Below are positions 3,172-23,740 of a DNA stretch of 64,000 bases, in pieces. Below the pieces are notes generated by a model, which worked only from the letters and a program-made list of their open reading frames with translations, was not told where the DNA came from and searched no databases. Numbering within the stretch: position 1 is the first letter of the stretch; every line of letters begins with the position of its first letter. Position numbers and translations under genes: made by a program. This DNA comes from Kosmotoga olearia TBF 19.5.1 (GTDB lineage: Bacteria > Thermotogota > Thermotogae > Petrotogales > Kosmotogaceae): positions 1,426,001-1,490,000 of the forward strand of contig NC_012785.1 in the NCBI RefSeq assembly GCF_000023325.1, read 5' to 3'.

Positions 3172-3600
3172 TGCTGAGAGCTAAGAAAGCTGCTACGCGC
3201 TGCGGGGCAGCGGATTCGAATCCCTTCGGGATTGTCACGAACTGCTTCGCAGTTGAAAAAACATTGGGCGCTTGCGAGGCTGTCAGCTGATGAAGCAACG
3301 CTTGCGAGGTTGAGGCTTGCGGACGCTGATAAAAGCCGAGAATCCGAGAATCCGAGAATTCGAGAGTCCGAGAAAAAACATGACGCTTGCGATAAAAAAC
3401 ACGAGAGTCAGAGAGGGCCGCTACGCGGCGGAAGTACTGAGCAGCGCTCAGGAGGCTCACGACGTTGACGCTCACGAGGTTGAGGCTTGCGGACGCTGAT
3501 GAAAGCCGAGAAACCGAGAGTCCAAGACGCTTGCGGGGCTATGCGCTGCTTCGCAGCGGCTATGCGCAACTTCGTTGCGGCTAAGTATCTTTTAGAGAGC
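3172..3600. repeat. Repeat island 3: 21-base units and CCGAGAAT tandem motifs
   Basis: Mini-hairpins AATCCC-TTC-GGGATT (3219) and AACTGC-TTC-GCAGTT (3240) are 21 bases apart. GGCCGC-TAC-GCGGCG (3416) and CTGAGC-AGC-GCTCAG (3437) are also 21 apart. Between them are degenerate units (GAGGCTTGCGGACGCTGAT) and short tandem CCGAGAATC motifs. It includes an unoccupied copy of the IS110 insertion site, GAGAGTCC-GA-GAA at 3362-3374. Frames on both strands stay open because 21 is a multiple of three, but they have no ribosome binding sites and are low-complexity, so I call no gene in 3088-3756. Confidence 0.8.
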
Positions 3601-12691: not shown

Positions 12692-12776
12692 ATAACCCCC
12701 CCTTAATCAGGATTCGCTCATATTCTATCACTTAGAGATTAAAATTCAAAATTAAATAGAGACACGGTTTTGATAC

Positions 12777-12922
12777 GAGAGTCCGAGAATTCGAGAGGGC
12801 CGCTACGCGGTGGAAGTGCTGAGCTGCGCTCAGGAGGCTCACGACGTTGACGCTCACGAGGTTGAGGCTTGCAGACGCTGATAAAAGCCGAGAATCCGAG
12901 ATCCGAGAATCCGAGAGTCCGA
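12777..12922. repeat. Repeat island 4, left part (interrupted by IS110)
   Basis: Contains GGCCGC-TAC-GCGGTG (12,798) and CTGAGC-TGC-GCTCAG (12,819), 21 bases apart, then CACGACGTTGACGCT / CACGAGGTTGAGGCT tandem copies and CCGAGAATCCGAG motifs. It ends at ...GAGAGTCCGA, where the IS110 element is inserted; the same repeat resumes at 14,433. A second GAGAGTCC-GA-GAA site lies at 12,777-12,789. No gene is present between the hup start and the transposase start. Confidence 0.8.
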
Positions 12923-12930
12923 TGTAGGAG

Positions 12931-12936
12931 TAAAAT
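12931..12936 (+). promoter_or_regulatory. -10 half of a junction promoter for the bridge RNA
   Basis: TAAAAT lies eight bases inside the left end. If the element is excised as a circle (right end - GA - left end), the TTGACA at 14,419-14,424 comes to lie exactly 18 bases upstream of it, giving a near-consensus sigma-70/A promoter directed into the left-end RNA. Published IS110 work (IS621) describes such a junction promoter. Here it is inferred from sequence. Confidence 0.7.
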
Positions 12937-12943
12937 AAAGGAG

Positions 12944-13095
12944 GCAGTCAGGAGGAAGAGAGGAACAGAGAGTCCATTCGCCATGAGAGCGACTGCTTCT
13001 CACACTCCCTCTTCCATCCTGGGAGTACTAGAGGATCAATAGTAGGATATCCGGGGAAACCCAGGAACGCTACATCGATTAACCTGTACTCATTG
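12944..13095 (+). ncRNA. Predicted bridge RNA of the IS110 element
   Basis: Two guide-bearing stem-loops lie between the left end and the transposase. Target loop: outer stem GGAAGAG (12,954-12,960) / CTCTTCC (13,009-13,015), apical stem TCGC / GCGA (12,978-12,992), left guide GAGAGTCC (12,968-12,975) identical to host DNA left of the GA core, right guide TTCTC (12,997-13,001) complementary to core plus right flank GAGAA. Donor loop: outer stem AGTAC-AGG-ATC (13,024-13,037, TAG bulge) / GAT-CCT-GTACT (13,077-13,090, TAA bulge), apical TCCGGG / CCC-A-GGA, left guide ATAGTAGG (13,039-13,046) identical to the right end at 14,424-14,431, right guide CTACATC (13,070-13,076) complementary to GATGTAG at 12,921-12,927. 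RNA ends are approximate. Confidence 0.85.
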
Positions 13096-13124
13096 ACTGC
13101 ACAATGTTTTTTGGAGGAATCAGT

Positions 13125-14417
13125 ATGGATGTTGTGGGAATTGACTGGTCGTGGAATTTTCACACCTGCTATTCTATCGAACAGGATAAGGTTTTTAAGA
13201 TCAAAGATGGTATAGCGGGGTATGAGAAGCTTCTGAAAACGGTATCAAAAGACGCTGTTTTCGTTATTGAGGAGAGTTTCAATCGTCTGGGAGATTTCTT
13301 GTTGTCCAGAGGGAAAGAGGTTTATCTCCTGCCACCGAAAAGGTCAAAGGAAGCCAGAGGCTATCATTCGAACGGCGTGAAGACAGATTCAACAGATGCC
13401 AGGTGTATCGCCCTTACCTACAAAGAACACCCGGAATATTGTATTAAGGCGACACATGACGAACTGGGTATGCTTTTCAGGGAATTGTTGAGGCATTACA
13501 GGTACTATACCGACATGGTTGCAAGACTTAAGAACAAACTTCAAAACGAACTTCATAATTATTTTCCTGAATATGCTAGGGTGATGGGTAGTTCTTGGAC
13601 AGATTGTGACGGGAAGATATTCCTGCTCACCATATGCCCGGATATAACCATGCTCAGGAAGATATCTGACAAGGAGATAAATAGACATTTCCAAGCGAAT
13701 CATCTACGCTACACATCCTCATTGAAAAGAAAGGTCAAAGAACTCAGGGAAAAAGCCGTTGATTGGGGCATGTCAAAATACACCAGGGACATGATCGCGA
13801 ATGTTGCCACACAACTTCTGGAAGCAAAAAGAGAGAAAAAGAAAATAACAAAAGAGATGGAGAAAGAACTACGTAAATCGAAATACAACATAATACTGAC
13901 GCTCCCGGGTGTTGGAGTAGCTACAGGAGTAGCATTAGTAACAGCATTTCTTACACACGAATTCAAAAATTACAGGGATTTCCAGAAGTATTGTGGAACT
14001 ATGCCAATAGTATCCCAGAGTGGTAATTTTAGCGTGTGCAGGATGAGGAAAAACTGTGACAAGAAACTCAGAGGCATTCTCCATATGATGGCGATAAACG
14101 CGAAGAAATGCGGAGCATGGATGAAAGGCTACTATGACAAGAAGATAAATAAAGAGGGCAAGAAACCATCTCTTGCCCTCAGAGCATTGGCAAACATCCT
14201 CGTCAAGATAGCCTTCGCCATGCTAAGAAACCTAAAAGCCTACGATGAGGAACTCTTCCTTTCCTCGCGTGGGAATAGGAGTCCTCGGTTAAATTATACA
14301 ACAAGAAATAGCATACCGGGGACTAAAAAAATGAAGAAAGAAAAGTTATCCCTGCCTGTCTCTGTTGCTCAAACCAACTGCCATTTGGGAGCAGTTTCAG
14401 GTAGTCTGTCTCCTTGA
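13125..14417 (+). CDS. IS110-family transposase (bridge-RNA-type recombinase)
   Basis: A 430-residue recombinase. The N-terminal RuvC-like DEDD domain shows GIDWSWNFH (first Asp), VFVIEES (Glu) and KTDSTDARCIA (last two Asp). A charged coiled region follows (about residues 110-260). The C-terminal Transposase_20 domain starts at ILTLPGVGVATGVALVTAF and contains CGTMPIVSQSGN, where IS110 proteins carry the nucleophilic serine. Length is normal and there is no frameshift. The ATG at 13,125 has GGAGG eight bases upstream and is preferred to an ATG seven codons earlier. The stop overlaps the base pairs of the right-end TTGACA. Predicted to work with the RNA encoded directly upstream. Confidence 0.95.
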   Translation: MDVVGIDWSWNFHTCYSIEQDKVFKIKDGIAGYEKLLKTVSKDAVFVIEESFNRLGDFLLSRGKEVYLLPPKRSKEARGYHSNGVKTDSTDARCIALTYKEHPEYCIKATHDELGMLFRELLRHYRYYTDMVARLKNKLQNELHNYFPEYARVMGSSWTDCDGKIFLLTICPDITMLRKISDKEINRHFQANHLRYTSSLKRKVKELREKAVDWGMSKYTRDMIANVATQLLEAKREKKKITKEMEKELRKSKYNIILTLPGVGVATGVALVTAFLTHEFKNYRDFQKYCGTMPIVSQSGNFSVCRMRKNCDKKLRGILHMMAINAKKCGAWMKGYYDKKINKEGKKPSLALRALANILVKIAFAMLRNLKAYDEELFLSSRGNRSPRLNYTTRNSIPGTKKMKKEKLSLPVSVAQTNCHLGAVSGSLSP

Positions 14418-14418
14418 C

Positions 14419-14432
14419 TTGACATAGTAGGT
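14419..14432 (+). promoter_or_regulatory. Right end of IS110 with -35 half of the junction promoter
   Basis: TTGACA (14,419-14,424) is a consensus -35 box just after the transposase stop; it has no -10 box downstream in the integrated state. The adjoining ATAGTAGG (14,424-14,431) is the left donor segment repeated in the donor loop of the predicted RNA. One base (T, 14,432) separates it from the GA core. Confidence 0.7.
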
Positions 14433-14898
14433 GAGAAAAAACATGACGCTTGCGACAAAAAAACACGAGAATCCGAGATCTGAGAACCGAGAGAGCTGCC
14501 TTTGCAGCGGGTAAGCACGCTTCGCGTGGCTACACTACGAAAGCAGGGATTCTCGAATTCTAGGGTCTCGGTTATTGATCGCGTCAGGAATAACGGTCTT
14601 TTGTCTGTGGGCTCTTATTTTAAGCAATGTCAACTGCGAAGCAGTTCGAAACAACTCCGAAGGAGTTCGTATCACCGGTGAAGCCGGTCGTAACAATCCC
14701 GAAGGGATTCGTATCCGCTGCAAAGCAGCCCTTTCGCTTTTTGATTTTTACGTACAACGCACAACGTACAACCAACAACGGGTTTTATCGCCGCGCAGCG
14801 GTTCGCGTCGCTCCATCAGCTGACAGCGTTGCAAGCCTCAGTTGTGCATTGGTTACCGGTTCTCGGATCTCGAACACCGGATCTCGGATTCTCGGTTT
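14433..14898. repeat. Repeat island 4/5: IS110 right flank and five-unit 21-base array
   Basis: After the resumed host repeat, the clearest array starts at 14,632 and continues at 14,653, 14,674, 14,695 and 14,716, an exact 21-base period: AACTGC-GAA-GCAGTT, AACTCC-GAA-GGAGTT, ACCGGT-GAA-GCCGGT, AATCCC-GAA-GGGATT, CGCTGC-AAA-GCAGCC. Linkers are CGAAAC, CGTATC or CGTAAC. Further right are GTACAAC direct repeats, a segment shared with island 7 (CAGCTGACAGCGTTGCAAGCC reads in the opposite sense there) and TCTCGGATCTCG motifs. Open frames here encode heptapeptide-like repeats (NSEGVRI, NPEGIRI) without ribosome binding sites, so I call no gene. Confidence 0.85.
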
Positions 14899-23344: not shown

Positions 23345-23740
23345 ACAATAGATACTCGCGAGGCGGAAGTGCTGGACTACGTCCAGGAGGCTCACGACGT
23401 TGACGCTCACGAGGTTGAGGCTTGCGGACGCTGATAAAAGCCGAGAATCCGAGATCCGAGAATCCGAGAATTCGAGAGTCCGAGAAAAAACATGACGCTT
23501 GCGATAAAAAACACGAGAATCCGAGAGGGCCGCTACGCGGCGGAAGTGCTGAGCTGCGCTCAGGAGGCTCACGACGTTGACGCTTGCAGACGCTGATAAA
23601 AAGCCGAGAACCGAGAACCGGGATTCGAGATCCGGGATTAGAAATTAAATGCGAGATTGGATGTTGGAGACTGGATTTTAGATAAAGATCTGGTCTAGGG
23701 TTTAGAAAAAGAGACGTACAACGTACAACCAAAACGAGAA
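23345..23740. repeat. Repeat island 6 with empty IS110 site and ~120-bp module
   Basis: Two tandem copies of the GGCCGC-TAC-GCGGCG / CTGAGC-TGC-GCTCAG / CACGACGTTGACGCT module (partial at 23,355, full at about 23,526). Between them is CCGAGAATCCGAGATCC sequence and an unoccupied IS110 target, GAGAGTCC-GA-GAA at 23,474-23,486, followed by AAAAACATGACGCTTGCG exactly as right of the IS. The segment 23,628-23,735 is the reverse-complement partner of the module at 1190-1345. The remaining 23,741-23,885 shows no convincing gene. Confidence 0.82.

What the first reader, a model, noticed from the sequence alone, without database searches (positions are those of the whole stretch)
14419..14432. Circle junction would create a promoter for the bridge RNA
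TTGACA at 14,419-14,424 (right end) and TAAAAT at 12,931-12,936 (left end) are separate in the integrated element. Joined through the GA core they sit exactly 18 bases apart and face the bridge RNA, predicting a start near 12,943. Expression would then peak only in the excised circle, as reported for IS621.
Basis: partly seen in the sequence, partly recalled or inferred. Interest (0 to 1): 0.75.

Follow-up and report, generated by a model that had tools for sequence, protein, structure and literature searches.

The report
Promoter assembled when jumping gene circularises
This bacterial jumping gene carries one half of a promoter at each end, so joining the ends in its excised circle would build a strong switch for its guide RNA; relatives share the design, which is already known for this family.

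Summary
The window holds a complete IS110-family element (12921-14434, core GA at both ends), one of four genomic copies. TTGACA (14419-14424) and TAAAAT (12931-12936) lie at opposite ends. Joined through GA they form TTGACA-N18-TAAAAT, 11 of 12 consensus bases; 1 of 20,000 shuffled end pairs does as well. In the four integrated copies nothing upstream of that -10 matches a -35 beyond 2 of 6 bases, and 12700-14600 has no forward-strand promoter match. Of 12 end-mapped Thermotogota IS110 lineages, 10 form a junction promoter of at least 10/12. The join falls anywhere from inside the -35 to 2 bp before the -10, yet the spacing stays 17-18. Two lineages lack it. The predicted start (about 12943) abuts the outer stem of a bridge RNA whose guide loops match the element's target and ends; the window copy's target guide differs from the other copies', as does its target. 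Junction promoters are already published for IS621, ISEc21 and ISEc11, so this is a new member of a known kind. Transcription and circles were not observed, and 'only in the circle' is untested.

The parts
12921..14434 (+). complete IS110-family element, both copies of the core GA included
   Evidence: copy boundaries in four genomic copies, 96-97% identical to the window copy; empty-site relatives
12921..12922 (.). left core dinucleotide GA
14433..14434 (.). right core dinucleotide GA
14419..14424 (+). -35 hexamer TTGACA in the right end, one base after the transposase stop codon
12931..12936 (+). -10 hexamer TAAAAT in the left end
   Evidence: same position relative to the RNA's outer stem in three other lineages (read)
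12943..13100 (+). predicted bridge RNA; outer stem GCAGTC (12944-12949) with GACTGC (13095-13100)
   Evidence: fold z = -3.02; four outer-stem pairs kept in 51 of 52 cells over 13 sequences
12968..12975 (+). left target guide GAGAGTCC, identical to the 8 bases left of the insertion point
12997..13001 (+). possible right target guide TTCTC, complementary to GAGAA at the right of the insertion (weak: only 5 nt)
   Evidence: read; inference
13039..13046 (+). left donor guide ATAGTAGG, identical to the right end of the element just before the core
13070..13076 (+). right donor guide CTACATC, reverse complement of GATGTAG at the left end (core included)
13125..14417 (+). transposase/recombinase, 430 aa, DEDD_Tnp_IS110 and Transposase_20 domains

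Best explanation
The element excises as a circle with its ends abutted through the GA core. The join brings the right-end TTGACA 18 bp upstream of the left-end TAAAAT. The resulting sigma-70-type promoter starts transcription at about 12943, producing the bridge RNA and probably, by read-through, the recombinase mRNA. Integration splits the promoter again and silences it. Shown here: the element, its ends, the two half-promoters, their exact spacing, their recurrence in relatives, the guide RNA fold, and the match of guides to target and ends. Inferred: that the circle forms in this host, that the promoter is used, and that integrated copies are largely silent except for read-through from outside.
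For: Hexamers and spacing, about 1 in 20,000 by shuffle. No forward-strand promoter-like site in 12700-14600 of the integrated copy; the two found are on the minus strand. In 10 of 12 end-mapped lineages a junction promoter scores at least 10/12 with spacer 17-18, while the distance from -35 to core varies from -2 to 13 bp and from core to -10 from 17 to 2 bp. When the best -35 in the right end and the best -10 in the left end were chosen independently, with no limit on spacing, the spacer came out uniquely 17 or 18 in 6 of the 11 lineages so tested, and 17 among ties in 3 more (in G052 unique in one of its two copies). In G006 (65% aa identity) a one-base deletion between core and -10 changes the spacer to 17 and leaves both hexamers intact. 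The predicted start abuts the outer stem of the RNA fold. Published precedent: IS621 RNA starts at a predicted sigma-70-like promoter in joined RE-LE (PMC11208160), and joined-end promoters are described for ISEc21 and ISEc11 (PMC11187229).
Against: The joined sequence is in no assembly searched: 103 phylum genomes with up to 2 mismatches gave one hit, the right end of copy L004 beside a look-alike flank; an exact search of genome contigs gave none. Two of 12 lineages lack the junction promoter, and one of the ten positive lineages, G012c, fails the unconstrained test. The swap control is weak: 39 of 72 mismatched RE+LE pairs also reach 10/12, against 9 of 9 native, partly because related lineages share offsets and the ends are AT-rich. 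Shuffle values of AT-rich lineages are only 0.02-0.05. The lineages are not independent; they represent about five distinct end architectures.
Confidence: 0.8

Rival explanations
1. The end sequences are conserved because the recombinase and bridge RNA must recognise them; the promoter resemblance is incidental.
For: The spacer contains the donor bases that pair with the donor guides, so part of the conservation has another cause.
Against: Both hexamers lie outside the bases matched by the donor guides (ATAGTAGG overlaps only the final A of TTGACA; GATGTAG ends before TAAAAT). Lineages with unrelated ends and cores (GA, TC, CT) still give 17-18 bp. About 1 in 20,000 by shuffle in the window element.
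Confidence: 0.1
2. The bridge RNA and transposase are made mainly in the integrated state by read-through from flanking host promoters; the junction promoter only adds to this.
For: Excision needs RNA and protein before any circle exists (inference). One integrated copy of another lineage, in G066, has a chance promoter-like match that uses flank sequence (10/12).
Against: No promoter-like forward match in 12700-14600; integrated copies of the window lineage score at most 2/6 for a -35.
Confidence: 0.25
3. TTGACA at the right end is an outward-facing half promoter meant to activate host genes next to insertions.
For: It points out of the element and is intact in all four copies.
Against: In the window copy the bases 17-18 bp downstream of it read CATGAC or ATGACG, not a -10; the right flanks of the four copies have no shared -10.
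Confidence: 0.05

Closest known systems
IS621 (IS110 family, Escherichia coli; Durrant et al. 2024, PMC11208160, passages and section 7 read)
   Same: IS110-type recombinase, left-end bridge RNA with target and donor loops, 2-bp core, promoter rebuilt across the core of RE-LE.
   Different: Core GA here instead of CT; the fold closes both loops with one outer stem, whereas the published consensus starts with a separate 5' stem-loop; different host phylum; activity untested.
ISEc21 (IS110 family; Siddiquee et al. 2024, PMC11187229, passages read)
   Same: Upstream non-coding region gives the guide RNA; the minicircle junction creates a -35/-10 promoter, sequenced from PCR product.
   Different: Circle demonstrated there, only predicted here; different target and ends.
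ISEc11 (IS1111 family; PMC11187229, passages read)
   Same: Active promoter generated at the circle junction.
   Different: IS1111 group carries its guide RNA downstream of the transposase and has subterminal inverted repeats; here the RNA is upstream.

Membership tests
IS110 family (IS110 group) | DEDD (RuvC-like) N-terminal domain plus C-terminal Transposase_20 domain | tested here: met
   PF01548 57.9 bits over a cut-off of 29; PF02371 60.5 bits over 21.3
IS110 family (IS110 group) | Acidic DEDD residues and C-terminal serine conserved | tested here: met
   D7, E49, D88, D91 and S299 are invariant columns in an alignment of 8; their catalytic role is recalled from the family, not from a call
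IS110 family (IS110 group) | Guide RNA in a long non-coding left end, upstream of the transposase | tested here: met
   about 200 bp between core and ATG; fold and guide matches. RNA itself not observed
IS110 family (IS110 group) | Insertion at a short core shared by ends and target, without further duplication | tested here: met
   core GA on both sides; empty-site relatives join exactly there
IS110 family (IS110 group) | Absence of terminal inverted repeats | not tested
   no repeat search was run on the ends
IS110 family (IS110 group) | Circular intermediate with abutted ends | not testable with these tools
   needs PCR or reads; joined sequence absent from assemblies searched
Circle-junction promoters of IS110/IS1111 elements | -35 in one end and -10 in the other, functional spacing only when the ends are joined | tested here: met
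   TTGACA-N18-TAAAAT joined; at most 2/6 -35 match when integrated
Circle-junction promoters of IS110/IS1111 elements | Promoter active in vivo | not testable with these tools
   no expression data

The most novel reading that the evidence does not exclude
Across Thermotogota IS110 elements selection keeps a circle-only promoter whose halves slide relative to the join: the crossover point moves from inside the -35 to 2 bp before the -10 while total spacing stays at 17-18 bp. Circle-gated guide expression would then be a selected trait of the family, not a by-product. Two lineages (the G003/G012/G016 group and G064c) have escaped by moving a promoter inside the left end, so both modes could be compared within one clade.
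Probability: 0.4. Interest if true: 0.5.

Novelty: new member of a known kind. Interest (0 to 1): 0.36.

Why it matters
Bridge RNA systems are programmable recombinases. A naturally circle-gated guide promoter explains how such an element could limit its own activity to the excised form. Finding the same spacing kept by different end layouts in one phylum gives comparative support to what had been shown for a few elements, and the two exceptions give a natural contrast. The window lineage also shows natural retargeting: the guide differs between copies in step with the insertion site.

Tried and rejected
Looking for a natural tandem (joined ends) in assemblies gave only the right end of copy L004 with one mismatch and no exact match elsewhere. 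An alternative -35 (TTGACT at 14414-14419) was considered: at 17-18 bp it faces no -10. The outward-promoter idea was rejected. The LE-internal promoter of the G003/G012/G016 lineage (TTGAAT-18-TACAAT) is weak evidence: a 4/6 -35 at 16-19 bp upstream of the anchored -10 arises in 21% of shuffles. For G064c the internal match is TTGAAA-17-TAATAT, 9/12; no chance value was computed. The right donor guide of G012b was not identified; the match printed lies outside the expected loop. A paper search for Thermotoga promoters listed one paper on another genus, which I did not read, so the use of the TTGACA/TATAAT consensus in this phylum rests on recall.

Rows left out: of the loci fetched, L118, L119 and L120 (single copies, ends unknown) were not tested, and L085 was not printed because of a small length difference. 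For G012b, L052 was left out of the junction because its left end is replaced by other sequence. Truncated copies L040, L042, L046 and L050 were not used. Most loci fetched (L060-L078) were not examined further. One copy stands for each lineage. G064c was at first left out and tested afterwards. The core of G012b differs between ends (GT left, GC right), and the cores of G091 and G050a are ambiguous within CTCC; the joined sequence of the latter two is the same for any choice.

Full report
The element. The window holds a transposase of 430 aa at 13125-14417 with the two IS110-family domains above their cut-offs. The genome, 2,302,126 bases in one contig, has four copies. From its size I take the host to be Kosmotoga olearia; this is recalled and comes from no call, as is the name Thermotogota for the phylum. 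Aligning the four copies shows identity beginning at GATGTAGGAG and ending at AGTAGGTGA, with unrelated flanks outside. The core is therefore GA, at 12921-12922 and 14433-14434. Joining the window's flanks recovers uninterrupted relatives of the site at 3298-3414 and 23403-23526 of the window and elsewhere in the genome, aligned without a break across the core.

The observation. TTGACA (14419-14424) lies one base after the transposase stop codon; TAAAAT (12931-12936) lies 8 bases inside the left core. Joined through GA they give TTGACA-N18-TAAAAT. Among 20,000 pairs of shuffled ends one reached 11/12 across the core, and the 64-kb window has two such sites on both strands together. In the four integrated copies the hexamers 15-19 bp upstream of TAAAAT match TTGACA in at most 2 of 6 places. 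A consensus scan of 12700-14600 found two promoter-like sites, both on the minus strand, no more than shuffles give.

Relatives. A protein search of 101 genomes found relatives in 8, the window's own genome included, and a profile search of 103 genomes of the phylum in 26. I mapped ends by comparing copies for 12 lineages. Junction results as -35, spacer, -10 are: window lineage TTGACA-18-TAAAAT; G006 TTGACA-17-TAAAAT; G012b TTGACA-17-TAGAAT; G012c TTGACA-17-TATTGT; G091 and G050a TTGACT-17-TATAAA; G022 TTGACT-17-TACAAT; G066 TTGACT-18-TATAAT; G050b TTGACT-17-TATAAT (all); G052 TTGACT-17-TAAAAT. The G003/G012/G016 lineage scores 9/12, reached by 26% of shuffles, and G064c at most 8/12 over a range of possible cores. 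That is 10 of 12 with at least 10/12.

Sliding join. In the ten positive lineages, in that order, the distance from -35 to core is 8, 8, 8, 11, -2, -2, -2, 12, 13 and 10, and from core to -10 it is 8, 7, 7, 4, 17, 17, 17, 4, 2 and 5. The sum with the core is always 17 or 18. Because the search allowed only 16-19, I repeated it by choosing the best -35 in the last 40 bases of the right end and the best -10 in the first 40 of the left end independently. Of 11 lineages so tested, six gave 17 or 18 uniquely (G052 in one of its two copies), three gave 17 among ties, and two did not (G012c with 39, and the G003/G012/G016 lineage, whose best -35 is only 4/6). Cautions: these lineages fall into about five end architectures, individual shuffle values of the positive lineages run from 0 of 3000 to 0.045, and swapped ends also reach 10/12 in 39 of 72 pairings.

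The RNA. The left end folds with z = -3.02. An outer stem closes the whole and begins one base after the start predicted by the -10. In the alignment of 13 sequences from four lineages this stem is kept, and 5 of 18 predicted pairs show changes on both sides. In these four lineages the -10 lies 7 bases upstream of the outer-stem GCAG (read). ATAGTAGG of the RNA equals the right end before the core, and CTACATC is the reverse complement of the left end with the core. The left target guide of three copies, GAGAACCGA, equals their target with core. The window copy has GAGAGTCC and sits at GAGAGTCC-GA. Five differences between the window copy and each of the others fall in 24 bases of this loop, against 0 to 1 in the other 132 bases of the RNA that were compared. 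The genome offers 106 GAGAACCGA and 92 GAGAGTCCGA sites, against at most 7 for reversed patterns, many at the repeat places listed.

An unexplained detail. In the window copy the guide-target match is shifted by one base against the other copies: the loop reads AACA, 7 nt, core GA, T in five sequences of the window and G006 lineages, while the window copy reads CA where the core should pair. Either the guide changed after insertion, or the loop tolerates a one-base slip.

Mechanism and status. The best reading is a circle-gated promoter: excision joins the ends, builds the promoter, makes the bridge RNA and probably the recombinase mRNA, and integration switches it off. Sequence, spacing and recurrence are shown; circle, transcription and gating are inferred. 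Because the donor guides match bases of the promoter spacer, the recombinase-RNA complex might also repress its own promoter (inference).

Literature. Durrant et al. (PMC11208160; passages and section 7 read) state that the excised circle of IS110 elements rebuilds a promoter across the core, and mapped IS621 RNA from a predicted sigma-70-like promoter in joined RE-LE. Siddiquee et al. (PMC11187229; passages read) report the same layout for ISEc21 and ISEc11 and say such promoters were active in a few cases. Six paper searches listed, by title and start of abstract, no paper on this element or on the constant spacing sum; only open-licence papers are held, so this is a weak negative. The principle is therefore known, and the element is a new member.

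Noticed in passing
12964-12987: The target-guide loop of the window copy differs from the other three genomic copies at 5 of 24 bases, in step with its different insertion site: natural retargeting, with a one-base shift in register that is unexplained.
   Followed up: partly
12776-12922, 14435-14840, 3298-3414, 23403-23526: The element sits in an interspersed repeat family (GAGAATCCGAGAGTCCGA strings with GC-rich hairpins) that matched at roughly 100 places in the genome; its guides match the repeat.
   Followed up: partly
L004, right flank of the element: The flank right of the core reads GATGTTGGAG, nearly the element's own left end (GATGTAGGAG); possibly a relic of an older copy, or chance.
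   Followed up: no
L045 1215-1280 and the same place in L037, L038, L039, L049: In this lineage the left end is about 40 bp longer between core and -10 and has a possible internal promoter TTGAAT-18-TACAAT, so guide RNA could be made without a circle.
   Followed up: partly
L053-L056, target loop: In the G012b lineage the guide and target change together: GTCCTTG in both for L056, GTCCTTC in the guides of L053-L055, with targets GTCCTTC in L054 and L055 and GTCCTCC in L053 (read).
   Followed up: partly
13091-13112: A small hairpin CATTG-ACTGCA-CAATG followed by six T lies between bridge RNA and transposase start; it did not pass the terminator scan but could limit read-through into the transposase.
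   Followed up: no
L106 left flank and L112 left end: A G050b-type element lies in opposite orientation against sequence of a G064c-type left end in the same genome (read), suggesting that one IS110 element targets another.
   Followed up: no
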